A stretch of 64,000 bases of DNA, from IMG/VR virus record IMGVR_UViG_3300046328_000056, positions 1 to 64,000 of that record; one strand, 5' to 3'. The stretch is from a virus. Shown piece after piece: positions 23-64,000 of the stretch (the stretch's first letter is position 1; the number at the start of each line of letters is the position of its first letter). Position numbers and translations under genes: made by a program. The notes under the pieces are model-generated. The model did not search any database. It had not been told where the DNA came from and saw only the letters and a program-made list of their open reading frames with translations.

Positions 23-436
23 TTATGCAGCTCGTGTGATGCCACGGGGGTCTTCCACAACTGCTTCAATCGAGTCATCGTTGATGATGCGAAATTCACG
101 GCCATGAATCTTCAGGCGGGTGCCTGAATTGGGGCGGACGATGACGAAGTCACCTTCCTTGCAGCTCGGTCCGCTGGGGAACCGGGTAGTGTCTTTGTAG
201 GCGTCGGGGCCTAGCTTGACCACAAACAACACGGGGGTCAGCACCTCTTCGTAGTGCATGGTTTGACCGGATTTAACAAGACCAATCTCGCTGTCGGAGA
301 ACTCTTCCATCGCCTCGGGGACAACGGTCAAGATGTGGAAAGTCTTGGGGTCAGGCAATTGCTTGGCTTTTTGCTCTGCGGTGGTATTCAAAATACCGGA
401 CAGGTCAACTGCCGCAACGTCAAATTCAGTCGTCAT
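23..436 (-). CDS. GroES-like co-chaperonin
   Basis: 137 aa. The C-terminal two thirds read like a cpn10 fold. A strand with VVKLGPDAY corresponds to the GroES 'VVAVGPG' strand, followed by CKEGDFVIV, a G-T-x-x-K-I-x-G-x-E-F turn and DDSIEAVVEDP, which matches the conserved end 'E-D-D-I-L-A-V-V'. Length is slightly above bacterial GroES (about 97 aa) because of an N-terminal extension. The likely role is to pair with host GroEL during folding of capsid protein, as T4 gp31 does; its place between portal and capsid genes fits. SD AAGGA precedes the start. The start overlaps the upstream 63-aa gene by 11 nt. The assignment comes from motif reading, not a search. Confidence 0.7.
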   Translation of the reverse strand: MTTEFDVAAVDLSGILNTTAEQKAKQLPDPKTFHILTVVPEAMEEFSDSEIGLVKSGQTMHYEEVLTPVLFVVKLGPDAYKDTTRFPSGPSCKEGDFVIVRPNSGTRLKIHGREFRIINDDSIEAVVEDPRGITRAA

Positions 437-31149: not shown

Positions 31150-31175
31150 CCCCCCGCCTTGTGCGGGGGTTTTTT
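31150..31175 (+). terminator. terminator of the rightward block at the convergent junction
   Basis: CCCCCGC/GCGGGGG stem with loop CTTGT and a run of T that reaches the stop codon of the leftward 1918-aa gene. It acts on the plus strand; on the minus strand no T-run follows. Confidence 0.9.
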
Positions 31176-34100: not shown

Positions 34101-36930
34101 TATTCACAAGGCCGGGCAACTCACGGATGGTGTCGGCAAAGCTGGATTTCTCCATGCGCTCAACCATCTTGTTGGTCTTGATCTTCTTCTTTTTAAGTTC
34201 AGAAGAAACTTCCGTGGCATCTGCACTGGCTCGTTCCGCAGCAATCTCCGCCCGCATATCGGCGGTCAGACGGGAACTGAGCATTGAATTGGTAACGGCG
34301 ATTACATCTGCAAGGGCGCTGGTGTGCATTGGCCCCATGTTGAAGAACTGACGCACGTTGTTGACGAACCGAGTGAACAGCGACTGCTTGGTAACGCCCT
34401 CGGTCTCCATCAAGAACTTCTGGAAACGTGGGTGGGACATTGCATAAGCAACAAACTCGCGGGGGTCACCAAAGATGTCGGAGACCACCAGTTCCCCCAT
34501 AAATTCTGGCAACGTGCCTGCGGCGTGCATTTCTTTCACACGCTTCAAAGTCATGTCCATAGTGCCTTGCAAGGCATCAAACGCTTTTACCAAATTAGCG
34601 TTGAGTTCTTTACCTGCGTTGTACGCCCCGTATGCCGCAGTTATTTTTTCATTCAGCGCGGCGTGCAGCATCTCGTGCAGCACGGTGACATTGTTCACGC
34701 CTTGGTTAGGGCCTCCAGTTACGCCGCGAACAAAGACAAAGCGTTCGCCAGTAGACACAACCCGCAAGAACATGCCACGGGATTCGTTCCAGTCGGCCTC
34801 TACTTTTCCTTCAATGATCTGAGGTGGCAACTGCGCGTCTTCCTCGATGACCATGAACTTGACGTCTTTTACAAACGGCAACAGGCGAGCGGCCAAGAAT
34901 CTTTGGAACGCATTACCAGTCTTGATGACGTGCCGCAGTGCTTGCTGGCCAGTGGTCATCTTGCTGAATCTGGAGTCAGCACGGCCCGCTTTGACCTCGG
35001 TCACAGCCTTGGATACTTGGGCAGCAATACCCTTTCTCACATTCTCCAACTCCATGCGAGTAATGGCGGGGTTCTTCAGCAGTGCTTCTGCTCGGTCACC
35101 CGGCTTAGTACCCTTGAGGGAACGCGCTAGCAACATCAAAGACTTGATCGCTTGGATTTTGCCGATGCGCTTGTCTCTTTCAGCGGCGGCTAAATTTTCA
35201 TCGGAAGTAATCTTGTCTTCATCAATGGGAGTGAGCGCTTCATTGAGCGCCTCCTCAGCAGTGTTAACAGCCTTCTCGTTTTCTTTCCAGTTTGCAGTTT
35301 GTTGTGCCCGACGTGCATCGCTGGCGGCTTTTGCTTCTGGGCTCAGGGGTTTACGGCCACGCTTAGTCTTGACCGACACTTCTTCCGCCACTTCTTCAGT
35401 AGGCAGAGTAGCCAAATCGCCAACGGCCTCAGCAACGTCGTCTGGGATCGCAGCTTCTTCAGCAATTACTTCGTCTGACTGCTCGGCTAATTCGGCAGCG
35501 GTTTCTACCGGCTCGGCAACGGTTGGTTCAATGACCGGGGCTGGAGTTTCTTCTGGTTGCTCGGCTAGTTCGGCAACGGGCTCAACGGGGGCTGTTTCTT
35601 GTCCTTGCGTTTCTGCTTGGATGGTTTCAGGGGTTTCAATGCCAACTTGGTCTCCTTGTTCAAACGGGTCAACTATTGCAACGGGCTGTGTTGCTTCTCC
35701 TGTAGCAACCCCTGCAACATCCTGTCCAGCAGGAACCACTCCACTTGGCTCAGGGACTCCAACTCCTCCGGGGGCGATGTCTGCACTGGGCTGTTCAGCC
35801 ACTGGAACGCCTGCTCCACTTGGCTCGGTGATAGTCTGTCCAGCATCTGGTTCTCCTTGAGCTTCCTCACTTGCAGGGGCTTTCTCTTCAGCTTCCAAAG
35901 TCGCGGCTTCAATCGCTCGGATGTTTGCCTGCGCGGGGTCGAGCCCCATGTCTAGGAAAGTTTGCTGGAATTGCGCAACGCGCTCAGGTTCGATGTCAGT
36001 GATGCCTTGCTTGGTCAGGTCGGCAGCAATCTTCTCAACTTCTAACGGCGCTTGTCCGGGTGTTGTAGGTTCTTGGGTAGGCGCAGTTTTAGGAGCAAGC
36101 AGTTCTTTTGCGCCCTGCACCGTAGCACCGAGTCCACCACCAACAATTGCGGCTTCAGCACCGCGAGTCAAAGCTTCTTCTGCGCTCAGACCTTTTTGTG
36201 TGCCCGCAGCTTCGCCAAGGTACGCTGCTTCTTCTTCAGCAACCTCAGTGCCCGCCTGAATACCTGTCTCTTTTGCAATCCGCCCCGCAGTTGAGCCGCC
36301 CGCAGTTGGTTTGAGCAAGCCTTTGGTGGCGAAGCGTTCAAGCGTGGATTCAATGACAGCCGCAGAAGCGGCGGCGGTTACATCCCCTACGGTAGCTTCG
36401 TCGAGTGTTTTGTTGTCGTTCTTGACCCGCTCGTCCAAGATTTCTTTTGTGCGCGCCGCCACATAAGCAGGGAACACGCCTGCTGCGGCGACCATGTCGG
36501 GGGAAGACGTGATTACCCGCTCGGCAATAAACGGAATTGCTTTAAGCGGATTGGTGCCCAGCTCTTTGAGCTGCGTGCTTGGCTGGTAACCGAGGCTCTC
36601 ATCAAAACCCTTCAACGACTTCGCCCAATCAAACAAGGGCTGAAGCTGCTTTTTGTTTTTAATGTCTTCTTCGCTTATGCCTGACAGGGGTACAGCCAAT
36701 TCCAGCTTGTCACCGAGCCTCTCGGCAGCCTCTGCCACTGCGCTAACACCCGCACCAGCCAAGGATGCGACACGGCCAAGCGCCCCAGTGAAGGGGTTTG
36801 CTGTGGTCTCTTTCGGGGGCGTAGTTTGGGCAAAGGGGTCAACGATCTGCGGCGCGGATTGCGCCTCAAAGGGGTCAACGATACCCCTCCGTTGCGGTTG
36901 TTGCGCCTCAAACGGATCAATGATGGCCAT
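31174..36930 (-). CDS. giant ejection-type polyvalent protein with zinc metallopeptidase site
   Basis: 1918 aa, the last gene of the late transcript. The N-terminus repeats I-[IV]-D-P-F-E-A-Q three times within 35 residues, and once more (A-I-V-D-P-F-E-Q) near residue 430. Then come helical, Ala-rich segments and a long Ala/Glu/Pro/Val stretch (about 300-500). A gluzincin-like site is formed by H752-E-M-L-H756 with a later P-R-E-F-V-A-Y-A. The C-terminal third resembles the PLxRFG-type region of large phage proteins. Likely packaged in the virion and injected with the DNA. SD AAAGGGG. The roles of the protease and repeats are unknown. Confidence 0.75.
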   Translation of the reverse strand: MAIIDPFEAQQPQRRGIVDPFEAQSAPQIVDPFAQTTPPKETTANPFTGALGRVASLAGAGVSAVAEAAERLGDKLELAVPLSGISEEDIKNKKQLQPLFDWAKSLKGFDESLGYQPSTQLKELGTNPLKAIPFIAERVITSSPDMVAAAGVFPAYVAARTKEILDERVKNDNKTLDEATVGDVTAAASAAVIESTLERFATKGLLKPTAGGSTAGRIAKETGIQAGTEVAEEEAAYLGEAAGTQKGLSAEEALTRGAEAAIVGGGLGATVQGAKELLAPKTAPTQEPTTPGQAPLEVEKIAADLTKQGITDIEPERVAQFQQTFLDMGLDPAQANIRAIEAATLEAEEKAPASEEAQGEPDAGQTITEPSGAGVPVAEQPSADIAPGGVGVPEPSGVVPAGQDVAGVATGEATQPVAIVDPFEQGDQVGIETPETIQAETQGQETAPVEPVAELAEQPEETPAPVIEPTVAEPVETAAELAEQSDEVIAEEAAIPDDVAEAVGDLATLPTEEVAEEVSVKTKRGRKPLSPEAKAASDARRAQQTANWKENEKAVNTAEEALNEALTPIDEDKITSDENLAAAERDKRIGKIQAIKSLMLLARSLKGTKPGDRAEALLKNPAITRMELENVRKGIAAQVSKAVTEVKAGRADSRFSKMTTGQQALRHVIKTGNAFQRFLAARLLPFVKDVKFMVIEEDAQLPPQIIEGKVEADWNESRGMFLRVVSTGERFVFVRGVTGGPNQGVNNVTVLHEMLHAALNEKITAAYGAYNAGKELNANLVKAFDALQGTMDMTLKRVKEMHAAGTLPEFMGELVVSDIFGDPREFVAYAMSHPRFQKFLMETEGVTKQSLFTRFVNNVRQFFNMGPMHTSALADVIAVTNSMLSSRLTADMRAEIAAERASADATEVSSELKKKKIKTNKMVERMEKSSFADTIRELPGLVNIRSMEDLTDALSSMYAGFDNFKMRQVLPTLQTEAVVQWSERSGVVGIREAWQYLTDMAAMRNKLTLDMVPVSEALAKLARSAPDQMRRLANVMHYSTLLYRDPTVAGNLSKDADLKKMWDGLTDANKKLYEQVRDFYKANHEQYHVLLEEQIANSKLAGTAKDGKSPKGKLIAQIKQIYEDGKKLYPYFPLMRYGQYWLRIGKGVNREFYMFENAFDRNMFLRKRIRQIQEAGTTESLREMQESGVIDMGNDLSDARKRDLDASGMLKEIFNSIDNGVKAGKEIVDDFGNAVSTMSSIDAEKLKDEIYQMYLQTLPDRNFRRQYMHRQGTTGFSGDIARNFAVTGTNMANQLARIKYGPRIMGELERATDTLAGNPDKARLGEFVTEMRMRAEQQVRPDPEDSLGYKTSALLNSSAYLWLMTSVKTAATQLTALPIFVGPVLTSNHGFNPVKVGAALAKSMAIFGTSGIRRQAEDGSSTFEFPSYLNNGLVKLTENQKLAAQYMADRGISDNTLAYDLGNRRDTPTNQLEGGVRRTMRTVSNVMTSLFHHTERMIREVTFMTSYDLYSQQTNKETGKKYTHEEALRAAEAETHEALGNYHASNRPRGLLADSERQVLINAQKPVGRTILQFKMFPAFVTTFFVRNAYRALAGIDAKDRAKAMTQLVGTLTMSTALAGYVGIPGATMAMGAIQGMMNAIRDEDDEDPLEERDLEFWFRNKWLPQTFGNIKIGDHTLDEILDKGLIASMTGYDISGSLSMNNMWVPDVKEQATSAAAMQEYLMSLLGPSASITFKQIPNAIDFFNKGEIARGIEQLAPAFARGSLTAYRYGKEGATTTSGAVIKEAEEFTQGQLLAQSMGFATEGLVARREAIFHLQGEILKVKRERTKLLDRLERELDKGSDEDVEKAFNNVFTFNSRNPYDAIGGDNIKQSIKKQIERKMKSDRGMPIDKKYYPQLLDLLEPSEKKLERERLMAQ

Positions 36931-47310: not shown

Positions 47311-47577
47311 TTACTCCTGATCTGGTGTCTTTGCCATATCTTCTGGTGCATGTTCAACACCGGGCGGCAAGAAAAACACGCCTTCAGGAGGAAGCGGGTA
47401 GTCATCTGGATTAAAAGGAGCGATATTGCCAGACGCCTCTAGCTCGGCAAACAACGCTTTACCAAAAGGCTCGACGTCATCTTTTGTGGCGGTGAACGGA
47501 ATCCACCCATATACAGGATGCTCAATGTCACAGTCTATTCCACCGACTCTTGTCCAACGTGCGTTTTTGTATTGCAT
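47311..47577 (-). CDS. small tail-fibre-associated protein
   Basis: 88 aa, start overlapping the fibre stop (TGATG). M-Q-Y-K-N-A-R-W-T-R-V-G-G, I-E-H-P-x-Y-G-W-I-P-F-T-A and E-P-F-G-K-A-L-F-A-E-L match small proteins that follow phage tail-fibre genes and probably act as fibre assembly factors or caps. A remnant of its first codons lies after the other fibre copy. Confidence 0.7.
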   Translation of the reverse strand: MQYKNARWTRVGGIDCDIEHPVYGWIPFTATKDDVEPFGKALFAELEASGNIAPFNPDDYPLPPEGVFFLPPGVEHAPEDMAKTPDQE

Positions 47578-48746
47578 CAAGAAATCCTCATCCAAATAGT
47601 TTGATCCCAAGAGGAGCCAACCGCATACCCCAAACATTTCCAAGTCCCACTTACAGAGTACCCGGCGTTCATCCAACCATTACCGTTATTGCCGGAAGGT
47701 GTGTTGTTAGTTCCTGCGGTAGAACCTTTCCACATACCCGCCGGAAACAAGCTGCTTCCAGCAACATTACTGCCAAAAGCAACGCCCCCGACGTAGCTGC
47801 CAAGAAAGGCCAACGTGCCCACAGCGCCCGCCGACAAACCTCCTATTGCAGTCCCAATTTGTGCGCTTGTAACAGTAGTCACTGTCCCAGCATTTGTAGC
47901 ATTGGTGGCGTTCGTAGCGTTGGTCGCATTGGTAACTGCTGTTGCACCAATCTGCCCAACAATATCCGCAGCGGAAGCCGTGGTGACGGCCCCTGTTCCT
48001 GCGCCTTTGAGAATCGCCCCGGAAGTAAAAGTCGTGGCCCCAGTACCGCCGTTGGCGACTGGCAAAGTGCCTGTCACGTTGGTTGTTAAATGGGCAAAAG
48101 TAATTGAGGTTGTCCCCGTTCCACCATTGGCTATGGGTAATGTTCCTGTGACATCAGTAGTCAACCCGACCTGAGCAAACGAAGTATTGGTGCCGTCTGA
48201 GCGAAGCACGCGGTTGTTTGTCTGTGCTGGGAGCAAAGCATTGAATGCCGCATTTGCTGTTGTCTGCCCAGTACCGCCTTTATTGATTGCCAAAGTGCCA
48301 GTCAGGTTCTGGGCCTGCAAGTCATAGAAACTTGTTCCGTCAGACCAGACCATGACTTTGTCGCCGTTTGCAATCGCAATGCCTGTACCTGCTGCGATGG
48401 TATTACCAATTACAGTGGAGTTGTAAATTGTGGCGGTGTACCCACTGTTGTTCCAGATGATGTACGACTTGGAAACGGGCGGCGCATAAATGGAAAAAGC
48501 TGCGCTAGTAGCGGTTGTCAACCGGAGCATAGCGTATACCGCCTGATTCAGCGCCGCAGTAGACGTTGCGCCGTTCAAATAGGTCAGCGCCTGATTTGCC
48601 GTTGTTACGCTGACGGTCTGATACCCCGCAATAGCATTGTCCAAAATATTTGAAAAGTTGCTGTTTGTGGTCGTCCCTAAAGCCCCGGCTTGGTCGCCGG
48701 AACCAATCAACTCAATGCGGAGACTGTTTGAATATGTGCTGCTCAT
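47577..48746 (-). CDS. tail fibre protein, copy 2
   Basis: 389 aa, the same length as the next-upstream copy and alike along its whole length. Start M-S-S-T-Y-S-N-S-L-R-I-E-L-I-G-S-G-D-Q-A. Several G-T-L-P-I-A-N-G-G-T-G-T-type repeats of phage fibres, A-T-N-A-T-N runs, and a C-terminus with W-M-N-A-G-Y-S-V-S-G-T-W-K-C. Likely a receptor-binding or side fibre. SD AAGGA. Confidence 0.85.
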   Translation of the reverse strand: MSSTYSNSLRIELIGSGDQAGALGTTTNSNFSNILDNAIAGYQTVSVTTANQALTYLNGATSTAALNQAVYAMLRLTTATSAAFSIYAPPVSKSYIIWNNSGYTATIYNSTVIGNTIAAGTGIAIANGDKVMVWSDGTSFYDLQAQNLTGTLAINKGGTGQTTANAAFNALLPAQTNNRVLRSDGTNTSFAQVGLTTDVTGTLPIANGGTGTTSITFAHLTTNVTGTLPVANGGTGATTFTSGAILKGAGTGAVTTASAADIVGQIGATAVTNATNATNATNATNAGTVTTVTSAQIGTAIGGLSAGAVGTLAFLGSYVGGVAFGSNVAGSSLFPAGMWKGSTAGTNNTPSGNNGNGWMNAGYSVSGTWKCLGYAVGSSWDQTIWMRIS

Positions 48747-48766: not shown

Positions 48767-49936
48767 TCACGAAATCCGCATCCAAAGAGTTTCGTCCCAA
48801 GAAGACCCCACTGCATAGCCCATACATTTCCAAGTTCCGGCAACAGAGTACCCAGCGTTCATCCAACCATCGCCGTTATTGCTTGATGGAGAACCGCCAG
48901 TACCCGCGCTAGACCCTTTCCACAAACCCGCTGGGTATAAACTACTGCCCGCGACGTTACTACCAAAAGCAACCCCGCCAACATAACTGCCCAGAAAAGC
49001 GTAAGTTCCAACAGCGCCAGCCGACAACCCCGCAATGGCCGTACCCACTTGCGCACTGGAAACTGTGGTCACCGTGCTGGCGTTGGTTGCATTTGTGGCA
49101 TTGGTGGCGTTTGTTGCGTTTGTAACTGCGGTGGAACCGATTTGAGCAACGATGTCGGCGGCTGAAGCCGCAGCAATTGCACCCGAGCCAGCACCTTTAA
49201 GGAGTGCGCCAGAGGTGAAGGTTGTAGCCCCAGTACCTCCGTTGCCAACAGGCAAAGTCCCAGTGACGTTGGTCGCCAAATTAACAAAGGTTGTAGACGT
49301 TGTGCCTGTGCCGCCGTTAGCGATAGGCAGTGTTCCTGTGACGTCAGTAGTTAAAGCAACTTGAGCAAACGAGGTGTTTGTGCCGTCTGATCTAAGTACT
49401 CGGTTGGCAGTTTGCGCAGGAGCCAGTGCGTTGAACGCGGCATTGGCGGTAATTTGTCCAGTACCGCCCTTGGCAATAGCCAGAGTCCCAGTCAGGTTCT
49501 GCGCTTGCAGGTCGTAGAAATTTGTACCATCCGACCACACCATGATCTTGTCGCCGTTGGCAACCGTAATACCTGTACCCGCTGCTGTAGTGTTGCCAAT
49601 AACAGTCGAGTTGTAGATGGTCATCGAGTATCCGCTGTTGTTCCAGACGATGTACTGCTTTGACACTGGGGGAGCATAGACGTTGAACGCCGCACCGGTA
49701 GTTGTCGTAAAACGCAACATGGCGTACACGGATTGGTTCAAAGCGGCTACCGCAGTCGGCCCGTTAACGTAGGTAAGAGCTTGGCTGGAACTTGTGACGC
49801 TGACGGTCTGATACCCAGCAATCGAGGCATCAAAGACGTTTGAAAGGTTGCTGTTTGTAGTTGAACCCCAAGCACCAGCTTGGTCGCCTGAACCAATCAA
49901 CTCTACCCGCAGGCTACTTGAATACGTGCTGCTCAT
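48767..49936 (-). CDS. tail fibre protein, copy 1
   Basis: 389 aa tandem paralogue of the copy at 47577. Differences are spread along the protein, with many silent changes in DNA, so the duplication is not recent. Its stop is followed by ATG-CAA-CGC-AAA-GGA-TAA, five codons that match the start of the 88-aa fibre-associated gene and then stop. SD CAGGAG. Confidence 0.85.
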   Translation of the reverse strand: MSSTYSSSLRVELIGSGDQAGAWGSTTNSNLSNVFDASIAGYQTVSVTSSSQALTYVNGPTAVAALNQSVYAMLRFTTTTGAAFNVYAPPVSKQYIVWNNSGYSMTIYNSTVIGNTTAAGTGITVANGDKIMVWSDGTNFYDLQAQNLTGTLAIAKGGTGQITANAAFNALAPAQTANRVLRSDGTNTSFAQVALTTDVTGTLPIANGGTGTTSTTFVNLATNVTGTLPVGNGGTGATTFTSGALLKGAGSGAIAAASAADIVAQIGSTAVTNATNATNATNATNASTVTTVSSAQVGTAIAGLSAGAVGTYAFLGSYVGGVAFGSNVAGSSLYPAGLWKGSSAGTGGSPSSNNGDGWMNAGYSVAGTWKCMGYAVGSSWDETLWMRIS

Positions 49937-54724: not shown

Positions 54725-55147
54725 TTAAACGAGTCTGATGAGTGCGGATGTGCTGGTGTTAGCTGGCATCGCCACGGTGAAAGTTGATGTGGAAGTTTTA
54801 TTGCTGCCAAAGTCCAACACACATACTGCGTCTCCAGTTGTGTTGTTGTAGATCAGTGCCCCACGAGCAGTGATTGCTCCAGTCCATGCTGGCGCTGCGA
54901 ACGATACATAAACTGTGCTGCCTGTTGTGGTGGCGGCGGTGGATACAGTAGCGGCAACAGTCTGACCGCCAGCGGAATAGTTTCCGCCAGACGCCTCGCC
55001 AGTGGCTGAGTAACCTGAAGTCTCTGCGTTAAGCGTAGCTGTGTTGGTATACAAAGCCAGCTTAAATACATCCGATGAAAAGTTCATCGTGCCGTTCATC
55101 AAGGCTGTGCGCAGTGAGTTGCAGGAGTAGTTGCCGGTAAATGCCAT
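54725..55147 (-). CDS. virion structural protein
   Basis: 140 aa. L-M-N-G-T-M-N-F-S-S-D-V-F-K-L-A-L-Y and A-R-G-A-L-I-Y-N-N-T. Beta-rich. The pair with the 54140 gene product is common in phages of this kind. Start overlaps the stop of the adaptor gene (TAATG). Confidence 0.65.
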   Translation of the reverse strand: MAFTGNYSCNSLRTALMNGTMNFSSDVFKLALYTNTATLNAETSGYSATGEASGGNYSAGGQTVAATVSTAATTTGSTVYVSFAAPAWTGAITARGALIYNNTTGDAVCVLDFGSNKTSTSTFTVAMPANTSTSALIRLV

Positions 55148-55884
55148 TAACGCACTCCATTATTCTGTGGCAGCGGAGCTTCGCGGTACTGCCCACTACG
55201 GTAAGCATCGCTGCGCTCCATACCATCGCCCAGACGTTTGGCCAACCCAAGTGCTTCTTTGTACTTGCCGTCATAAAGCGCAATGATGTCTTGCTCGCCC
55301 TTCATGAAGGTGTAAGCCTCGACCAGTGAACCATACAACAGCACGGAATCAAAGTTGTCGCCCAACCAAGTGTGGCCAGAAGCCACAGTCGTGATGGATT
55401 CGGGATAGTAGTAGTAGTGCAACTCAACGTCATACGCCGCATCAGGAGTTGGGCCAAGAATGAAACTCAGCTCGTTTGTGATGGCAGGGCTTGGGTCGTT
55501 GGTAGTCGTTGGGCCAAACAGAGCGTAGTACTTGGGTGTTGAGTAACCTGCGGCACCCGTATTTGGGTATGCCTGACGGATGAAATTCACATCCTTGTTC
55601 AACAGGTACTCGTAATTGTCGTCCGCATCAATCACGGCCAACGAATACGACGCCAAAAAGTCGGCGGGGCACGATAGATACTTGTTACCAGTCGTGGTTA
55701 CCCCCGTCACATTCTTGCGCAACGAGGGGAACTGAACCGTGTTGTAGATGCGCTGCTCAGCCTGCGTGATGAAGGTGTTTAACTGAGCCGTTGAAGACTC
55801 AGTTGCTCCACTTGCAAGGTACGTTTCCGGGAACGTATTCTCGGTGTACGACTGAATAGCAGCAATCAACTCGGTGTAGGTCAT
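55147..55884 (-). CDS. head-tail adaptor-like protein
   Basis: 245 aa. T-Y-T-E-L-I-A-A-I-Q-S-Y-T-E-N at the start, Q-A-E-Q-R-I-Y-N-T-V-Q-F-P, then Y-Y-Y-Y-P-E-S-I, and helical end E-A-Y-T-F-M-K-G-E-Q. This matches the adaptor type of SU10-like podoviruses, which binds under the portal. Overlaps the small-protein gene upstream by 4 nt. Confidence 0.7.
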   Translation of the reverse strand: MTYTELIAAIQSYTENTFPETYLASGATESSTAQLNTFITQAEQRIYNTVQFPSLRKNVTGVTTTGNKYLSCPADFLASYSLAVIDADDNYEYLLNKDVNFIRQAYPNTGAAGYSTPKYYALFGPTTTNDPSPAITNELSFILGPTPDAAYDVELHYYYYPESITTVASGHTWLGDNFDSVLLYGSLVEAYTFMKGEQDIIALYDGKYKEALGLAKRLGDGMERSDAYRSGQYREAPLPQNNGVR

Positions 55885-56138
55885 GCCATCGGGCCTCGGG
55901 CCATCAAGCCTTTAGTTGCCGCGCCAGTGCCGCGAATCTTGATGCCGCTGGTTTTGGTTTCAGAGTAGTTGCCTTTGCTGATGCCACCAGCAGACATGTT
56001 CATCTGATTCATGCGGGCTGCGCCGGTCTCTGTAGGCACTTCTGCCTTCAAAGCCTTACCCTTCATAGTGTGTGGCTCTGCGTAGACGCTGGCTGGACCA
56101 ACTTCTTTGCCGCCCTTTTTCATGCTGTATTTAGCCAT
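55881..56138 (-). CDS. small basic protein with Gly motif
   Basis: 85 aa, Lys/Met/Gly-rich. M-K-K-G-G-K-E-V-G-P start and G-I-K-I-R-G-T-G-A-A-T-K-G in the C-terminal half. Related in style to the RGKT-motif proteins upstream. Probably a minor virion protein. Confidence 0.65.
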   Translation of the reverse strand: MAKYSMKKGGKEVGPASVYAEPHTMKGKALKAEVPTETGAARMNQMNMSAGGISKGNYSETKTSGIKIRGTGAATKGLMARGPMA

Positions 56139-56139
56139 A

Positions 56140-56304
56140 TTAGCCTCCGCGAGCGCCGCCGCGCTGATTCATTGCACGAGCAACATTGCGGCCATACTTG
56201 CGCATGGATTCGCCTGTCACGCCACCTTTGGCCATTTTGTGCATACGCTGCTCGTGAGATTTCACTTCTTTGCTGGCAATGCGTTTAACTGCTTTCGTGT
56301 CCAT
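56140..56304 (-). CDS. very small basic protein with KGG motif
   Basis: 54 aa with SD AAGGAG. M-A-K-G-G-V-T-G-E-S-M-R-K-Y-G-R-N-V-A-R and a C-terminal Q-R-G-G-A-R-G-G. One nt separates it from the next gene. Basic enough to bind DNA; no enzyme motif. Confidence 0.65.
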   Translation of the reverse strand: MDTKAVKRIASKEVKSHEQRMHKMAKGGVTGESMRKYGRNVARAMNQRGGARGG

Positions 56305-56313
56305 ATCGACTCC

Positions 56314-56742
56314 TTATGTCGTTACAACCGTAACTGTACCAAGTTCCACAGTCAAAACCAAATTATTTGGAGTCAATGTGGCATCAAAAAATGAAGAACC
56401 TCCTACGGGATTCCACCCCCACTGGAAGATTCGACTTCCCGCCTCGTTGGTTCCTGAACCTGTTGGCCCAGTCCCACCATTCACGTTAATCTGCAACCCG
56501 CTGTTGCCTGACAAAAGATAGCTTCGATCTGGGCGGGGGTTACGCAAACCTTGGGGGTCGTCCACCGGGAACATACCCAACTGCAACTGAGGCTGGTCAG
56601 GGTCCCAACACTCTGGACATACAAGCAAGTCGTAGTTCTTGGTTTTGATGATCTCTTTGCGCAAAACCTTGAGCTTGAACCGCTGGTCGCAACGGTCGCA
56701 CTGGGCGATTGCCCATTTGCCGCTGGCGAACCTATTTCCCAT
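56314..56742 (-). CDS. zinc-ribbon virion-associated protein
   Basis: 142 aa. C-D-R-C (15-18) and C-P-E-C (42-45) form a zinc ribbon; then L-G-M-F-P-V-D-D-P-Q-G-L-R-N-P-R-P-D and a beta-rich C-terminal half. The N-terminal part is common next to head-tail genes of similar phages. Start overlaps the preceding stop by 1 nt. Confidence 0.65.
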   Translation of the reverse strand: MGNRFASGKWAIAQCDRCDQRFKLKVLRKEIIKTKNYDLLVCPECWDPDQPQLQLGMFPVDDPQGLRNPRPDRSYLLSGNSGLQINVNGGTGPTGSGTNEAGSRIFQWGWNPVGGSSFFDATLTPNNLVLTVELGTVTVVTT

Positions 56743-57197
56743 TACACAATTCTCCCTTTGGTCTTACCACGGGATGCGATACCGTCGGCTCGGCGAGAGG
56801 CGGTCATGCCGCCCTTCTTCATGCCTGTACCGGCAGCGCCCACCGGGTCTTTGGTACGGACTGCGTCGCCACCTGCGTCTTCGTATTCATCGTTGTCCTT
56901 GGCTGCGGCGGCTTCTTTGCTGGTCATTGCTTTTACACCCGCGCCAGCAGCGCCTGCGCCTGCGGCTCGACCAACCATGCGGCTTACAGCTCGATCTTCG
57001 GCCAACTCAACAGATTTTTTGGCCGCGCCTTTTGCTTTAGTTGGTGGGGCGGTGATCTTTTTAATGTCGTCCATGAGGCTGGCGTTGCCCTTCATTGAGG
57101 GCATTCCGCTCCATTTGGTGCTTTTAATGCTCGCACCAGCACCGCCGCCTTCAAGCAGTTGTTCATCCAAACCACGCCTTGAGGGGTTCTTAGCCAT
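56742..57197 (-). CDS. small virion protein with C-terminal RADGIASRGKTKG motif
   Basis: 151 aa, Lys/Ala/Gly-rich, no known domain. Ends K-K-G-G-M-T-A-S-R-R-A-D-G-I-A-S-R-G-K-T, the motif shared with four other small proteins. Adjacent to the gp4-like gene; overlaps it by 1 nt. Confidence 0.65.
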   Translation of the reverse strand: MAKNPSRRGLDEQLLEGGGAGASIKSTKWSGMPSMKGNASLMDDIKKITAPPTKAKGAAKKSVELAEDRAVSRMVGRAAGAGAAGAGVKAMTSKEAAAAKDNDEYEDAGGDAVRTKDPVGAAGTGMKKGGMTASRRADGIASRGKTKGRIV

Positions 57198-58126
57198 TAT
57201 GTACCTCCAATATATTGCTGTCTGGGCACGAACCGAATTGCGGCTTTTTCGTGGTCCTCATACGCAGCCAATTCCCAAGCCTCGTCATACTGAGCCTTCA
57301 GAAACTGTAGGCGCTCAGCGCCTTGCGGGATTTTTCCAGCCACGTAGTAAGACAAACCTGCAACCATGCAAGGGATAAAGCGGAATGGAACGTCCATTAC
57401 GTTCACACCGCCGCCAGCGTCTTGGGTGCGGCGCAGTCGCCAGTACACGAATTGGTACGGCTGCACATTGTCTGGGGTTGGCCAAACGGTCACGGCGGGC
57501 AGGTTCTGTACGGCCACGGCCACGCCAGTCAGGTGAGCTGCGGCTGTGGTGTTGTTCTGCCCACGGAAGCAATTATTGAGCGTATTGCCGTCGATATAAC
57601 CATAATTGATGGTTTCTGAGCCTATCTGCACAAAGCCCACAGCGGGCATACCAGCGGTGGAAGTCACCGTGATTGTGGTGTCAGTGGCTGAAATACCGCC
57701 ATTCAACGTGGTAATCGGGGCCGCAGTCTGGCCATCCAGACGCTGTACCCACACCTGAATTGGGCGGGCCTGTTGAAGCTTGTTGGGCAGGGTAGCGTAG
57801 GTGGAGACACTGATGCGTGTGATGGTCAGGTCGGCCTGAGTAGCGACGTTGTTGGCTTGTGTGCGGATGACGTGCTCCAGCAAGTCCACGGTGTCATTGG
57901 GCAGGGCATAGGTGTTCTGGCCCGGAACCAAATCAATGACCCCGGTCTCAATCGTCCACATGTTGATGCCACGGTTGGCCCACTCAGCGAACATGATGTT
58001 GAGGCTACGGCGAGCCGTGCGCAGGTCGTAACCCGTGCGCAGTTCACCCCCAGCGCGTTCAAACGCCTCCTCGACTAAGTCGGTCAGGTCGAGGTTAAAT
58101 GATGTGGAGCCGGAAGTAACTGCCAT
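57197..58126 (-). CDS. P22 gp4-like head-tail connector / tail accessory factor
   Basis: 309 aa. D-L-V-E-E-A-F-E-R-A-G-G-E-L-R-T-G-Y-D-L, then R-S-L-N-I-M-F-A-E-W-A-N-R-G-I-N-M-W is a strong signature of the gp4-like family that binds the portal ring. An Ig-like or beta insert (about 135-200) carries the fibre-type stretch. Followed by RGKT-motif genes. Confidence 0.8.
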   Translation of the reverse strand: MAVTSGSTSFNLDLTDLVEEAFERAGGELRTGYDLRTARRSLNIMFAEWANRGINMWTIETGVIDLVPGQNTYALPNDTVDLLEHVIRTQANNVATQADLTITRISVSTYATLPNKLQQARPIQVWVQRLDGQTAAPITTLNGGISATDTTITVTSTAGMPAVGFVQIGSETINYGYIDGNTLNNCFRGQNNTTAAAHLTGVAVAVQNLPAVTVWPTPDNVQPYQFVYWRLRRTQDAGGGVNVMDVPFRFIPCMVAGLSYYVAGKIPQGAERLQFLKAQYDEAWELAAYEDHEKAAIRFVPRQQYIGGT

Positions 58127-58127
58127 A

Positions 58128-58406
58128 TTAAATCAACTTTCCACGGGTTTTGCCGCGAGATGCTACACCGTCGGCGGATTTTATATACCCACCACGCTTA
58201 GCCGTTACAGGCTGTTCATCGGATTCTGTAGAACTTATTTTTTCTGGAAGCTTGCCGGGAATAAGTTTGGGTATGTAGCGTGAACCACCATAAGTTGTAT
58301 CCATGCGGTTGCTCGCAGCGTTAGCTTTACTAATGCTGTCGTATTCTTTATTACGCACCCAGTTTTGAGACTTTATATCCCAAACACCAAACTTATTATC
58401 CGCCAT
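58128..58406 (-). CDS. small protein with C-terminal SADGVASRGKTRG motif
   Basis: 92 aa. N-terminal half W-D-I-K-S-Q-N-W-V-R-N-K-E-Y and S-K-A-N-A-A-S-N-R-M-D. Ends G-G-Y-I-K-S-A-D-G-V-A-S-R-G-K-T. Not recognised otherwise. Confidence 0.65.
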   Translation of the reverse strand: MADNKFGVWDIKSQNWVRNKEYDSISKANAASNRMDTTYGGSRYIPKLIPGKLPEKISSTESDEQPVTAKRGGYIKSADGVASRGKTRGKLI

Positions 58407-58639
58407 TATCTAAACCCTGCCGTTTTCTTTGCGATGTTTTTGGGTTGCGCCACAAACTGCTTACCCGCTGCCTTACCTTTGCGCTTGGCTTTGGTTGTGG
58501 CTGCGTACTCGGCGGAAGACAAAGACTTAATGGCCGCTTCAGGGAGATACCTCTCACCTGTTTTTGACGAAGGCTTCCCCGACTTGGTACGCCATTTCTG
58601 GTCGCCCCAATTTTTAAGGGAAGTCTGCGGTGCTTTCAA
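58406..58639 (-). CDS. small basic protein, TTG start (DUF5872-like)
   Basis: 77 aa. S-L-K-N-W-G-D-Q-K-W-R-T-K-S-G-K-P-S-S-K and G-E-R-Y-L-P-E-A-A-I match a family of small basic phage and virus proteins (DUF5872, name from memory). TTG start inside the previous stop context (GATTGA), SD GGAGG. Confidence 0.65.
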   Translation of the reverse strand: MKAPQTSLKNWGDQKWRTKSGKPSSKTGERYLPEAAIKSLSSAEYAATTKAKRKGKAAGKQFVAQPKNIAKKTAGFR

Positions 58640-58911
58640 TCTCTGTAACCTCCACCAGCAGCTTTGTATTTCTTGGCTACAAGCTGCGCCTTACGTGCTG
58701 ACCACTGGCCAGCTCCAGTACCGTGAGTCGCCGCCGCCTTAACCTGAGACACAATCCGCTTGCGCAGACTTGGCTTGGTGTAATTGCCAGCGGCGTTCAC
58801 GCCACCACCTTCCGCATACTCAGTAAAGTCGGTGTCGTCCCTACGAGCCTTGCGCTTGGCCCCGGGCATTTTCTTGGGGTTGATAGCCCCCATGCCACGG
58901 GATGCCATCAT
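58636..58911 (-). CDS. small basic protein
   Basis: 91 aa, very basic. K-K-M-P-G-A-K-R-K-A-R-R-D-D, a Y-A-E-G-G-G-V-N-A-A-G-N-Y-T-K-P segment, and a C-terminal A-A-G-G-G-Y. Looks like a DNA-interacting virion protein; unrecognised family. Confidence 0.6.
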   Translation of the reverse strand: MMASRGMGAINPKKMPGAKRKARRDDTDFTEYAEGGGVNAAGNYTKPSLRKRIVSQVKAAATHGTGAGQWSARKAQLVAKKYKAAGGGYRD

Positions 58912-59141
58912 TGGATGATCGTCCCACGAGTTTTACCGCGCTGGGCAATACCGTCTGCACGGCTGGAAGCGGAACCACCAGAAGCCATCTTCTTGGCGGG
59001 CTTCACAGGCTTGCCGTCAACACGAATGTCTTGGCCGGGTTGCTCGGGCATACCGGGCTCACCCTTTTTGAACTTGCGTCCAGCGGATGCGCCATCAATG
59101 TCTTTTGGTGCTTCTTTGTTCTTTTCCAGTTCGTAGTCCAT
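58908..59141 (-). CDS. small protein with C-terminal RADGIAQRGKTRG motif
   Basis: 77 aa, charged, with SD GAGGTGA. Ends A-S-G-G-S-A-S-S-R-A-D-G-I-A-Q-R-G-K-T. The rest is Glu/Lys/Pro-rich and probably disordered. Confidence 0.65.
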   Translation of the reverse strand: MDYELEKNKEAPKDIDGASAGRKFKKGEPGMPEQPGQDIRVDGKPVKPAKKMASGGSASSRADGIAQRGKTRGTIIQ

Positions 59142-59149
59142 GATTCACC

Positions 59150-59821
59150 TCAATACATTTTGCAGTTGGTTTTACCGCGAGACGCAATACCGTCGGCGCG
59201 TTTGGAAGCAGTCATACCGCCAGAAGCCATCTTCTTGGTTGCGCCGCCTTTTTTGTACGAAGAACCAAGAGCGGCTCGCATACGCTTACCCAGCAACCCG
59301 CTGTCCGCATCATCTTCGGATGTTTTGGTTGGGGTTTTTTCGACCATCTTCCCGCTGAGACTGCGGTAGTACTCTTTTTTCGCTGTACTTGCTGGGGCCA
59401 AATCGGGCTTTGCAGCGGGCGCTGGAGCGTTACGGCCTTCATTGCTGTAGTCAGAGTTTTTGGCCACAGCAGGACGACCACGGCTCATACCGGCTTCCAA
59501 ATTAACGCGAGAAGGATCGCCACGGGGGGCTGTCTTAGCGGTCGTAGAAGTGCGAGGAGCCGTGGCTGTTTTAGGGGCCGCAGGCGTTGCCTTTTCAGGC
59601 ATGACAACGTCGGCCTCAGTAATGGGTTTACTGTCGCCATCGGACTTTTTCATGCTGCGCTTGATGGTGTCTTCAGGAGACTCCAAACGAGTCTCGGTGG
59701 ACTCTGGACGCGCTGCACGGGTGGGGTTTGAATCCTCGCCCTTGTCCTTGTCTTTGGACGCCATATACGCTGCGCCCGCAAGAGCAGCAAGACCCGCTAA
59801 TCTGCCTAGTTTCTTCGCCAT
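59150..59821 (-). CDS. protein with disordered middle and C-terminal RADGIASRGKT motif
   Basis: 223 aa. N-terminus L-A-G-L-A-A-L-A-G-A-A-Y-M-A-S-K (short hydrophobic segment), a long disordered Lys/Ala/Pro/Thr stretch, and the end A-S-G-G-M-T-A-S-K-R-A-D-G-I-A-S-R-G-K-T. The largest member of the motif group. SD AAGGAG. Confidence 0.65.
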   Translation of the reverse strand: MAKKLGRLAGLAALAGAAYMASKDKDKGEDSNPTRAARPESTETRLESPEDTIKRSMKKSDGDSKPITEADVVMPEKATPAAPKTATAPRTSTTAKTAPRGDPSRVNLEAGMSRGRPAVAKNSDYSNEGRNAPAPAAKPDLAPASTAKKEYYRSLSGKMVEKTPTKTSEDDADSGLLGKRMRAALGSSYKKGGATKKMASGGMTASKRADGIASRGKTNCKMY

Positions 59822-59836
59822 GACCGGCTCCTTAAA

Positions 59837-60319
59837 TCAGCACTTGCCGCCGTTCTTCATGCCTTTGTTACCGGGCATGACAATCATTTTGCCTTTGGTT
59901 TTGCCTTTGGCAGCAACACCGTCGCGGCTAGGAGCTGCGGTTTTAACTGCGCCCATCTTGCTGGCAGTCATGCCGCCTTTGGCCATTTTCTTAACTTTCA
60001 TTTCGGACTCCTCGTGTTTAATCATAGATGCAGGTGCGCCCTTCTTTTTCATGAAGGACACTTCTTTTTTAACCATTGCTTTTGACTCAGCCATCTCGCC
60101 TCCTTTTGCGAACAATTCGTTCTTACCTTGATTGGTTTTGGGCTTGTTGATTGCTTGTGCATCCGCACGGCTGCCCGAACCCTTACCAAATTTCATGCCT
60201 TTACTGGCTTCGCTGAAGTCCTTGCCAACGGCTTTAGGCACTCCAACTTTCTTTGCAAACGCTGGGTTATGCGCCACAGCATCCATGAATTTCTTTTGTT
60301 TAAGACTTGTCGCTGGCAT
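59837..60319 (-). CDS. small basic protein with modified RGKT motif
   Basis: 160 aa from the ATG that overlaps the previous stop. A-K-G-G-M-T-A-S-K-M-G precedes P-S-R-D-G-V-A-A-K-G-K-T-K-G, so the shared motif is split by an 8-residue insert. Several K-K-M and G-K-G segments; ends N-G-G-K-C. Confidence 0.65.
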   Translation of the reverse strand: MPATSLKQKKFMDAVAHNPAFAKKVGVPKAVGKDFSEASKGMKFGKGSGSRADAQAINKPKTNQGKNELFAKGGEMAESKAMVKKEVSFMKKKGAPASMIKHEESEMKVKKMAKGGMTASKMGAVKTAAPSRDGVAAKGKTKGKMIVMPGNKGMKNGGKC

Positions 60320-60558
60320 CACTTCCCCGCTGAAAGAAGGCGGTCAATCTTTTCTTCAAGCTTGTTGAAGCGTTGGTCAATGTGGTCAGTAACCCTTGCA
60401 ACTTCTGCTTTAGTAGCTGTATCACGGGCAATCTCCTCGCGTGTGATGTTTAAGAGCCGCTCAAGACGTTTGACATCCTCGAATCTCTCGCGGATGAAGA
60501 ACCACACTGCGCCCATGACAAGCGACAGTGCGCCAGACCAAATGGTGTTGATGTCCAT
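60319..60558 (-). CDS. small membrane protein with coiled coil
   Basis: 79 aa. One membrane segment (I-W-S-G-A-L-S-L-V-M-G-A-V-W-F-F-I) then an E/R/K coiled coil. An additional holin- or spanin-like candidate, but far from the lysis cassette. Function unknown. Confidence 0.65.
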   Translation of the reverse strand: MDINTIWSGALSLVMGAVWFFIRERFEDVKRLERLLNITREEIARDTATKAEVARVTDHIDQRFNKLEEKIDRLLSAGK

Positions 60559-60559
60559 G

Positions 60560-60814
60560 TCAGCATTTCCACCGAGCCAAGGAAGCCGCCTTGCGGGTGG
60601 GCTTGCCTTTTTCGTCTTTCATCGGGCCGGGCATACCAGACATACGAGCGCAGAATGACTTCTTACGGGGGCCACCTTCGGGCTGTGGAGCCTTCAGGTT
60701 ACTGCCCGTTGCTGCGTTGTACTTGGCACGACCTTTGGCGGTCAAACCTGCTCCTTTGGAGACGGGCAGCTTTTCGCCACGGCCAACTGCAAGAGAGGGA
60801 TTTTTCTTAGCCAT
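60560..60814 (-). CDS. small basic protein (DUF6321-like)
   Basis: 84 aa. G-A-G-L-T-A-K-G-R-A-K-Y-N-A-A-T-G-S-N-L and K-S-F-C-A-R-M-S-G-M-P-G-P match a family of small basic phage and large-virus proteins (DUF6321, name from memory). Probably in the virion. Overlaps the upstream gene by 8 nt. Confidence 0.7.
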   Translation of the reverse strand: MAKKNPSLAVGRGEKLPVSKGAGLTAKGRAKYNAATGSNLKAPQPEGGPRKKSFCARMSGMPGPMKDEKGKPTRKAASLARWKC

Positions 60815-62437: not shown

Positions 62438-62465
62438 AATATACACCATTTTCAATCGGAGTCAA
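62438..62465 (-). promoter_or_regulatory. late-region promoter for the 61847 gene
   Basis: On the leftward strand TTGACT (62465-62460), 16-bp spacer, TATATT (62443-62438). The -35 overlaps the last codons of the HNH gene. Confidence 0.75.
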
Positions 62466-63036
62466 GCAGCTTATTGGACTTTTTTAAGTTTTCCCCCTGA
62501 GTGATGACCCGTAGATTCCACGGCACATGCAAGCCGCAAACAAAATCAGATCGCAAAGGGATGATGTGATCTACAACGTATTGCTCGCCAGTGGTTTTTG
62601 TGAGGGTAATGGCAGCTTGATACATCTGCCGTATTTCAGTTTTTTGTCTGCGGGAGAGCCACGGTGGGGTGGCTTCACGGTGTTTGCGTCGGCGAGCTTT
62701 TGTATCCGCACGAATTTTAAGGACGTTGTTTGCTTTCCATACGTTGCGATATTCTCGTTTTACATGGTCTGGGCGGGTAGCCGCTGCCTGCTTTACCTTT
62801 TCATGGTTCTCAAGATACCACTCGTTTTTTCGGTCTTTAACTTCTTCCCGCCGGTTGTACTCACGGAAGTACTCAGCACGGGCCTCGTTTCCTTTTTCCC
62901 ATTCAGCCTTCAAGCATTCAACGCACGCCCCCTTTGTTTTACGCAGCGCGATATGCCCATACTTGCATGGTTCGCCTGTGAAATAGTGCTTAGCCCCCGT
63001 GGACTTAGCCTCTGCTCTGGTTTTTGGGTACTCCAT
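62452..63036 (-). CDS. HNH endonuclease inserted in the head operon
   Basis: 194 aa. Zinc-type C-K-Y-G-H and C-V-E-C near the start, a basic helical middle, and a C-terminal HNH core V-V-D-H-I-I-P-L-R-S and G-L-H-V-P-W-N-L-R-V-I with N-L-K-K-S-N. A different HNH subtype from the two YGGRGI-type enzymes. SD AGGAG. Likely a free-standing homing nuclease. Confidence 0.85.
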   Translation of the reverse strand: MEYPKTRAEAKSTGAKHYFTGEPCKYGHIALRKTKGACVECLKAEWEKGNEARAEYFREYNRREEVKDRKNEWYLENHEKVKQAAATRPDHVKREYRNVWKANNVLKIRADTKARRRKHREATPPWLSRRQKTEIRQMYQAAITLTKTTGEQYVVDHIIPLRSDFVCGLHVPWNLRVITQGENLKKSNKLLDSD

Positions 63037-63127: not shown

Positions 63128-64000
63128 TCAGGCAGAACCTGAAGAACCCCACATACCCAATGGGTCAGACCAGCCGAAGCTATAACGCTCGCGGGCTTTG
63201 TAACGCACGTTGCCGGTGTCGAAATCACCATCCATTGAGTTCTGGAGGGGAGTGCGGACGAAGTGCTTCATACCGTTAGGCACGTCAGTGGTCAGATACC
63301 AACCATTGGTGTCGGTCAAGAAGTGGTTGACGGTGTAGCCTTCTGGCACAGCGCCGTTGTTCTTGATAGCGTTGATGTCGTTGTCGTTTGTACCAACGCG
63401 CAACTCGGTTTCGAGCAAGCGGGTAGCGACGAACATCAGGCTAGGAGGAACAATCAACTTCTTGGGTTTAGCAGCGATCAACAAGCCACGCTCGTCTGTC
63501 CAAGCAGCGATCTGAATGACAGCGGCTTCCAAAGAAGTCTCATTCAAGTCGGCTTGAGTAGCGGGAGTGTTGGAGTTGACACCACCAGAAACCAAGGGAT
63601 GGTTTGCGTTGAACAAAGAAACGCCGTCACCACCGGGGTAAGTGTTGCTGAAACCGTTGTTGATAACGGCAGCAGCTTTCACTTGCTTGGTGTACGCCAT
63701 CGCACGGGCCAAGGACTTGGTGTAACGAGCAGACAAGCTGTCGTACAAGTTATCTTCGACCGCTTCTTCAGTGATCGAGAAACCCAAGGCGATGGTTTCG
63801 TGGGTGTAGCGGGTTGACCATGCTTCTTGTGCATTGTCGTAAGCGATGGCAGAACCTTCGTTTTTGACAGGTGCGGCAGAGAAGCCGGACAGCTTGGTTT
63901 CTTCTTCGAAAGAACGCTCAGAAGTCTCGGTTTCGTAGATTTCTTTGTGTTCTTCGCCGTAGCGAGCGTACTCCATACCGAACAAGGCGTTCAGGCCGGG
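63128..64000 (-). CDS. major capsid protein, N-terminus outside the window
   Basis: 291 codons present, incomplete at the N-terminus. First visible residues P-G-L-N-A-L-F-G-M-E-Y-A-R-Y. F-E-E-E-T-K-L-S-G-F, then Y-T-H-E-T-I-A-L-G-F-S-I-T-E-E-A-V-E-D-N, L-F-N-A-N-H-P-L and the C-terminal F-G-W-S-D-P match the HK97-fold capsid proteins in which an E-D-N helix and N-x-H-P motif are conserved. Probably only a short stretch is missing. Confidence 0.85.
   Translation of the reverse strand, partial: PGLNALFGMEYARYGEEHKEIYETETSERSFEEETKLSGFSAAPVKNEGSAIAYDNAQEAWSTRYTHETIALGFSITEEAVEDNLYDSLSARYTKSLARAMAYTKQVKAAAVINNGFSNTYPGGDGVSLFNANHPLVSGGVNSNTPATQADLNETSLEAAVIQIAAWTDERGLLIAAKPKKLIVPPSLMFVATRLLETELRVGTNDNDINAIKNNGAVPEGYTVNHFLTDTNGWYLTTDVPNGMKHFVRTPLQNSMDGDFDTGNVRYKARERYSFGWSDPLGMWGSSGSA

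What the first reader, a model, noticed from the sequence alone, without database searches (positions are those of the whole stretch)
55881..60319. Group of very small virion-region proteins sharing a C-terminal tag-like motif
Five genes (56742, 58128, 58908, 59150, 59837) end in GG-x-x-x-S-x-[RS]-ADG-[IV]-A-x-[RK]-GKT-x-G although the rest of each protein differs. Two neighbours (55881, 56140) have related KGG and RGTGAATKG segments, and ADGGIV-type motifs recur in the large ejection proteins. A shared short end on unrelated small proteins looks like a sorting, packaging or processing signal for the virion, which I do not know from described systems.
Basis: partly seen in the sequence, partly recalled or inferred. 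Interest (0 to 1): 0.72.

Follow-up and report, generated by a model that had tools for sequence, protein, structure and literature searches.

The report
Shared C-terminal tag on phage proteins
An uncultured freshwater phage carries five otherwise mostly unlike small proteins that share one short tail-end sequence; the same kind of tag recurs on well over a hundred different proteins in lake and ocean phages, and may be a docking label that recruits a changing set of cargo proteins into the new virus particle.

Summary
An HMM built without this virus finds it in exactly the five named proteins among 890 window ORFs. A stop-independent IMG/VR scan gave 318 tagged ORFs in about 120 loci. In most, the tag ends 1-3 residues before the stop. 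Their N-terminal parts fall into 101 clusters, so this is not full-length paralogy. Two further tag types exist at the same place in related marine phages (RGxGAAxRGxxFKGVF*, RGCGAVMxxRRKKTxY*). 55881 is the only window ORF matching the second. Homologous proteins occur with type I, II, III or no tag, most cleanly DUF6321, where the tag is a 22-23-residue extension absent from most orthologues. Synonymous codons vary freely, so selection acts on the peptide. Models of two tagged proteins leave the tag unstructured. In eight genomes of 50-67 kb all tags lie in one block of head-neck genes.

Best explanation (inferred): a C-terminal docking peptide recruiting variable, basic, disordered proteins to a common virion-assembly partner, working like T4's N-terminal capsid targeting sequence. 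Not shown: presence in virions, the partner, cleavage, ejection. The ejection-protein "ADGGIV" motifs are something else. Cultured tagged phages (HTVC023P, Pag-Yong1) make it testable.

The parts
56742..57197 (-). tagged protein, 151 aa; tag at 56745-56822 (KKGGMTASRRADGIASRGKTKGRIV*)
   Evidence: HMM without window seeds E=4.1e-12; genome search E=1.2e-14
58128..58406 (-). tagged protein, 92 aa; tag at 58131-58202 (KRGGYIKSADGVASRGKTRGKLI*)
   Evidence: E=2.6e-7; E=4.7e-12
58908..59141 (-). tagged protein, 77 aa; tag at 58914-58991 (KKMASGGSASSRADGIAQRGKTRGTIIQ*)
   Evidence: E=3.5e-15; E=5.5e-15
59150..59821 (-). tagged protein, 223 aa, short hydrophobic N-terminal stretch; tag at 59153-59233 (KKMASGGMTASKRADGIASRGKTNCKMY*)
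   Evidence: E=2.5e-11; E=1.4e-15
59837..60322 (-). tagged protein, 161 aa: N-terminal 3-helix module (phrog_16759; stands alone in phiKZ-like jumbo phages) plus divergent tag at 59882-59953 (SRDGVAAKGKTKGK) followed by about 15 residues
   Evidence: E=1.2e-3; E=3.1e-8; PHROG hits; AlphaFold model; jumbo-phage homologues
55881..56138 (-). 85-aa protein with type II-like C-terminal tag (KIRGTGAATKGLMARGPMA*, 55884-55934); 55 orthologues in tagged loci
   Evidence: only window ORF hit by marine tag HMM, E=1.3e-4; orthologue C-termini conserved
56140..56304 (-). 54-aa basic protein in the block; no C-terminal tag, only an AKGG stretch
   Evidence: no tag HMM hit
58406..58639 (-). 77-aa basic protein (phrog_14910), untagged here; marine homologues carry the type III tag
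58636..58911 (-). 91-aa basic protein (phrog_17747 at the C-terminus), untagged, conserved neighbour in 90 loci
60560..60814 (-). DUF6321 protein, untagged here; seven orthologues have a 22-23-residue tag extension (six type I, one hybrid)
57197..58126 (-). SU10/Pam1-type head-tail adaptor, anchor gene of the tag block (97 loci)
   Evidence: PF24175, synteny
55147..55884 (-). second SU10-type adaptor, far edge of the block
   Evidence: PF24175 E=3.5e-23
63128..63985 (-). major capsid protein, upstream in the same transcription direction (full ORF runs past the part listed)
   Evidence: PF25209/PF10124, phrog_371

Best explanation
The shared end is a C-terminal docking peptide. Shown: it is a discrete module of about 16 residues behind a GG-rich linker, tied to the C-terminus, selected at the protein level, carried by many unrelated small proteins, present, absent or of another type on homologous proteins, and confined to one hypervariable block among the head-neck genes of one broad aquatic phage lineage. 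Inferred: during head assembly the tag binds one conserved assembly partner (capsid, scaffold, portal or adaptor) and so co-packages a quickly changing set of small, basic, largely disordered proteins, which act on packaged DNA or are ejected into the host. It would work like the T4 capsid targeting sequence on IPI/IPII/IPIII and Alt, or like encapsulin cargo-loading peptides.
For: Position: 132 of 159 pattern hits end 3 aa before the stop, all within 15 aa; type II exactly 2 aa before the stop in 131 of 133; type III 3 aa before the stop in 102 of 118. Cargo diversity: 101 N-terminal clusters, 68 singletons. Modularity: DUF6321 with and without the extension, including a hybrid end RGGGCEIRGKTKGKMV in L087; homologous N-termini with types I/II, II/III and III/none. 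Protein-level selection: invariant D, G, G, T with free synonymous codons. Equal tag similarity within and between genomes and orthologue groups. Tag unstructured in AlphaFold models beside folded parts. All tags in one structural block in 8 genomes of 50-67 kb, next to adaptor, capsid and portal genes. [quoted passage not shown] encapsulin CLP on an HK97-fold shell (PMC7355545).
Against: No proteomic or structural evidence that any tagged protein is in a virion. Relatives with homologous capsid and adaptor genes show no tag in the proteins inspected (HTVC027P, psg01, CRP-901), so the lineage can do without it. No gene separates tagged from untagged genomes, so the partner is unidentified. About a quarter to a third of type I tags have 8-27 extra residues behind them, and about ten proteins carry the core far from the C-terminus. 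No solved relative.
Confidence: 0.48

Rival explanations
1. The tag is a nucleic-acid-binding tail: a short basic RG/GKT-rich peptide that lets small proteins coat or condense packaged or replicating phage DNA, with no specific protein partner.
For: Whole tagged proteins are basic (mean +0.106 per residue against +0.026 for other ORFs); R/K at several fixed tag positions.
Against: Invariant D, G, A and T, a fixed distance to the stop and alternation between three distinct sequences are more specific than charge needs; the N-terminal parts alone are only mildly basic (+0.059).
Confidence: 0.2
2. Simple paralogues: tandem duplicates of one ancestral tagged gene whose disordered N-terminal parts have diverged beyond recognition, the tag being the conserved remnant.
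For: Tagged genes are adjacent and on one strand in every locus; N-termini are poor in order-promoting residues (0.18 against 0.33), so fast divergence is plausible; weak 56742/59150 similarity.
Against: Recognisable conserved proteins (DUF6321, 58406-type, the 59837 module) occur with and without tags or with different tags, which duplication alone does not explain. It may still account for some of the genes and does not explain why the tag is kept.
Confidence: 0.14
3. The tag acts in the host after injection: a localisation or binding motif for a host target (polymerase, membrane, ribosome, protease), shared by ejected effectors.
For: Small, variable, non-universal proteins in a hypervariable slot resemble accessory effectors; the C-terminus is predicted to be exposed.
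Against: The genes sit strictly among head-neck genes rather than early genes; hosts are unknown and probably diverse while type I is nearly invariant.
Confidence: 0.1
4. The conserved stretch is a DNA or translation signal (recombination site, or Shine-Dalgarno of the next gene) read by chance as a peptide.
For: The next start lies a median of 1 nt after the stop; the last codons (GGA/GGG AAG ATG) could double as part of a ribosome-binding region; codon identity is slightly higher within genomes (0.453 against 0.409 between genomes).
Against: Core arginines are mostly CGN, D is GAT or GAC at 173:128, and Thr/Gly/Ala use several codons.
Confidence: 0.04

Closest known systems
T4 capsid targeting sequence (CTS) of IPI, IPII, IPIII and Alt
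   Same: Short constant peptide on several small, variable, basic proteins; [quoted passage not shown]
   Different: CTS is N-terminal, about 10 aa and removed by the gp21 protease; this tag is C-terminal, about 16 aa plus GG linker, and no separate protease was recognised nearby
Encapsulin cargo-loading peptide (CLP)
   Same: Short, often C-terminal peptide on unrelated cargo, loading it into an HK97-fold shell (PMC7355545)
   Different: No sequence relation tested; here the carrier is a phage with portal and adaptor and the partner is unknown; several tagged cargos per genome
Jumbo-phage (SPN3US) head propeptides
   Same: Terminal segments proposed to target head proteins, including a C-terminal one on the protease (PMC7411985)
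   Different: Long (64-130 residues), cleaved at AXE; not described as one short motif shared by unrelated proteins
DUF6321 (PF19846) and phrog_16759 module
   Same: Two conserved phage modules that carry the tag in some phages
   Different: They are cargo, not the tag; widespread without it (526 cultured phage records match DUF6321, mostly cyanophages; phiKZ-like phages)

Membership tests
T4-type capsid targeting sequence | One short peptide shared by several otherwise different small proteins | tested here: met
T4-type capsid targeting sequence | Located at the N-terminus as a propeptide | tested here: not met
   C-terminal in nearly all cases
T4-type capsid targeting sequence | Removed by a phage prohead protease | tested here: inconclusive
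   No separate protease domain recognised among the capsid-cassette genes scanned; cleavage itself untested
T4-type capsid targeting sequence | Sufficient to put a foreign protein into the head | not testable with these tools
   needs fusion and virion analysis
Encapsulin cargo-loading peptide | C-terminal short motif behind a flexible linker on unrelated cargo | tested here: met
Encapsulin cargo-loading peptide | Binds the lumen of an HK97-fold shell encoded nearby | not testable with these tools
   A phage capsid gene is nearby, but no complex could be modelled
Simple paralogue family | Full-length homology among the tagged proteins | tested here: not met
   101 N-terminal clusters at E<=1e-4; BLASTP among the window five finds mainly the tag
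Type II tag (RGxGAAxRGxxFKG), for 55881 | Match to the marine tag profile at the C-terminus | tested here: met
   sole window hit, E=1.3e-4; none in reversed ORFs
Common descent of tag types I and II | Profile-profile similarity | tested here: inconclusive
   hhalign aligns RADGIAQRGK with RGQGAAIRGT at 42% probability, E=2.6e-4; a hybrid exists in L087

The most novel reading that the evidence does not exclude
A widespread aquatic phage lineage uses a small set of interchangeable C-terminal tags (types I, II, III) as a general loading code that lets unrelated, fast-evolving disordered proteins join the virion and be injected, with tag and cargo evolving separately.
Probability: 0.33. Interest if true: 0.85.

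Novelty: new variant of a known kind. Interest (0 to 1): 0.64.

Why it matters
If the tag is a virion-loading signal, it gives a computational handle on many unnamed small proteins of abundant freshwater and marine phages: any protein with the tag becomes a predicted virion passenger. It would extend the T4 idea (one targeting peptide, changing cargo) to a different phage lineage and offer a short C-terminal address for putting proteins into phage particles. Cultured phages with tags exist (HTVC023P with two, Pag-Yong1 with one), so a basic proteomics test is possible now.

Tried and rejected
Searches for the tag in cultured phages by tblastn with short or full proteins gave nothing; tags there were found by profile and by reading C-termini. 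No PDB chain matches the tag or the capsid protein, and the DUF6321 model has no PDB fold match. No Pfam or PHROG function for the type I tagged proteins except DUF6321 and the phrog_16759 group; type II likewise. Genome-contig scan: one hit, a 5.9-kb virus-like contig in a Gammaproteobacteria MAG, so prophage contexts were not found. Gene-presence profiling for a partner was uninformative and used incomplete relatives. Shine-Dalgarno or DNA-site reading rejected for the core by codon use. ADGG motifs of the ejection proteins rejected as tags. The GxxxxGKT match to a Walker A pattern was judged coincidental: a P-loop context is not possible at the extreme C-terminus, and the K is replaced in a few tags. 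Literature: no paper in the library contains the string RADGIAQRGKT, and concept searches found nothing relevant; the library is open-access only and holds no preprints.
Full report
What was checked. The window is 64,000 bases of a 66,296-base IMG/VR virus record. The region 55.1-60.8 kb (- strand) lies between the major capsid gene (63128-63985) and the tail genes and contains two SU10-type adaptor genes (57197-58126 and 55147-55884). BLASTP among the small proteins aligns essentially only their C-terminal parts. Tail-to-tail comparison of 32 window genes puts all ten pairs of the five named proteins at 55-95, while shuffled tails reach a mean best of 39.9 and a maximum of 60 in 100 trials. 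An HMM trained on other viruses only finds these five and no other window ORF below E=0.4. The ADGG motifs of the large ejection-type proteins are not matched by the tag profile. 55881 carries a different but related end, RGTGAATKGLMARGPMA*.

How common and how strict. Of 159 ORFs with the strict pattern, 132 end three residues after it and all end within 15. An HMM raised this to 318 complete tagged ORFs (a handful of them from the window and its own copies), one to five per locus and always on one strand. The loci were chosen by the pattern, so residue frequencies at pattern positions are inflated; C-terminal position and cargo diversity are not. N-terminal parts fall into 101 clusters at E<=1e-4, 68 of them singletons. 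In eight records of 50-67 kb every confident tag lies in one block of about 0.3-3.2 kb.

Two more tag types. RGCGAVMxx[RK][RK]KKT did the same, with 118 ORFs in 118 loci, three residues before the stop in 102. The patterns for types II and III came from reading relatives and from memory of marine phage proteins; the scans are the test. Types I and II are both 16 residues from the first Arg to the stop in their commonest form; profile comparison aligns R-x-x-G-x-A-x-R-G only weakly (42%). Marine type II loci contain homologues of the freshwater portal (64 loci), terminase (44), first adaptor (43), capsid (33) and second adaptor (32), so the tags occupy comparable cassettes. 55881 of the window is the only ORF hit by the type II HMM, and its orthologues recur in 55 freshwater loci.

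The tag is a module. In the DUF6321 family seven freshwater orthologues have a clean 22-23-residue extension after the conserved ...W-x-C end, while the window protein and most others stop there; one (L087) has a hybrid end RGGGCEIRGKTKGKMV. Homologous N-terminal parts carry type I in L119 and type II in L133 (60%), type II in L225 and type III in L301 (96% over 55 residues), and type III or nothing in the 58406 family (60%). The N-terminal module of 59837 is a stand-alone protein in phiKZ-like jumbo phages.

What selection sees. At the tag core D, G, G and T are invariant and K and A nearly so, yet codons vary: Asp GAT/GAC 173/128, Arg mostly CGT/CGC, several Thr, Gly and Ala codons; codon identity at shared residues is 0.453 within and 0.409 between genomes. 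So the peptide is selected, not the DNA. Tags are no more alike within a genome (0.68) or within an orthologue group (0.68) than across both (0.71), as expected of a motif held by one common constraint. Tagged N-terminal parts are poor in order-promoting residues (0.18 against 0.33) and whole proteins are basic. AlphaFold gives DUF6321 a moderately confident helical domain with the tag at pLDDT 34-40, and 59837 a confident three-helix N-terminus with the tag region at about 37-53; both alignments are shallow.

Cultured relatives. HTVC023P has two type II-tagged proteins (gp32, gp51) and Pag-Yong1 one type I-like protein (UMO75986.1...RDGCAKRGRTKGRFI*). HTVC027P, 023Pt_psg01 and CRP-901 share the capsid and adaptor but showed no tag in the proteins inspected. 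No gene family is present only in tagged genomes and in all of them, so the partner is either shared by tagged and untagged relatives or not phage-encoded.

Mechanism. The steps shown are: discrete C-terminal module; many cargos; presence, absence and swapping on homologues; protein-level constraint; restriction to one structural gene block. The inferred steps are: recognition by a common assembly partner, entry into the virion, and action on DNA or host after ejection. The T4 capsid targeting sequence is the nearest working analogue, with encapsulin cargo-loading peptides as a C-terminal parallel. It fails the N-terminal criterion of T4 CTS, and cleavage is unsupported, so it is not filed as a CTS.

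Limits. Virion content, partner, cleavage and ejection were not testable. Literature was checked only in an open-access library.

Noticed in passing
L090:2679-2867, L100:8345-8533 and about eight similar loci: A 59-92 aa protein (MAFTKSADGIAKKGKTEGKNLGDSGP...MGRNLAKIANQKRG) carries the tag core near its N-terminus; its C-terminal part resembles window gene 56140.
   Followed up: partly
window 60560-60814: DUF6321 is found in 526 cultured phage records, mostly cyanophages, usually as an unannotated protein, and at the C-terminus of several larger PHROG families; function unknown.
   Followed up: partly
window 59837-60322 (residues 2-42): Three-helix module with close relatives as stand-alone 52-58 aa proteins in phiKZ-like jumbo phages (fnug_197 = PHIKZ165.1; Eowyn gene 51, annotated 'structural protein').
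   Followed up: partly
window 31174-36930: 1918-aa protein whose C-terminal half matches DarB-like antirestriction and other giant phage proteins.
   Followed up: no
window 62452-63036: A 194-aa ORF with an HNH-like C-terminal stretch (VDHIIPL) lies between the capsid gene and the next head gene.
   Followed up: no
window 23-436: GroES-like co-chaperonin encoded in the capsid cassette, found in all relatives profiled.
   Followed up: no
window 47577-48746 and 48767-49936: Tandem duplicated 389-aa tail-type proteins with nearly identical C-termini.
   Followed up: no
L123:6847-7191 (phage DSL-LC04): C-terminus YAKGGLVTSKGQGRVIRSKKTRIC* looks like a further tag variant close to type III.
   Followed up: no
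tag 3' ends, all loci: The last tag codons (GGA/GGG AAG ATG) lie a median of 1 nt before the next start and may double as part of its ribosome-binding region.
   Followed up: partly
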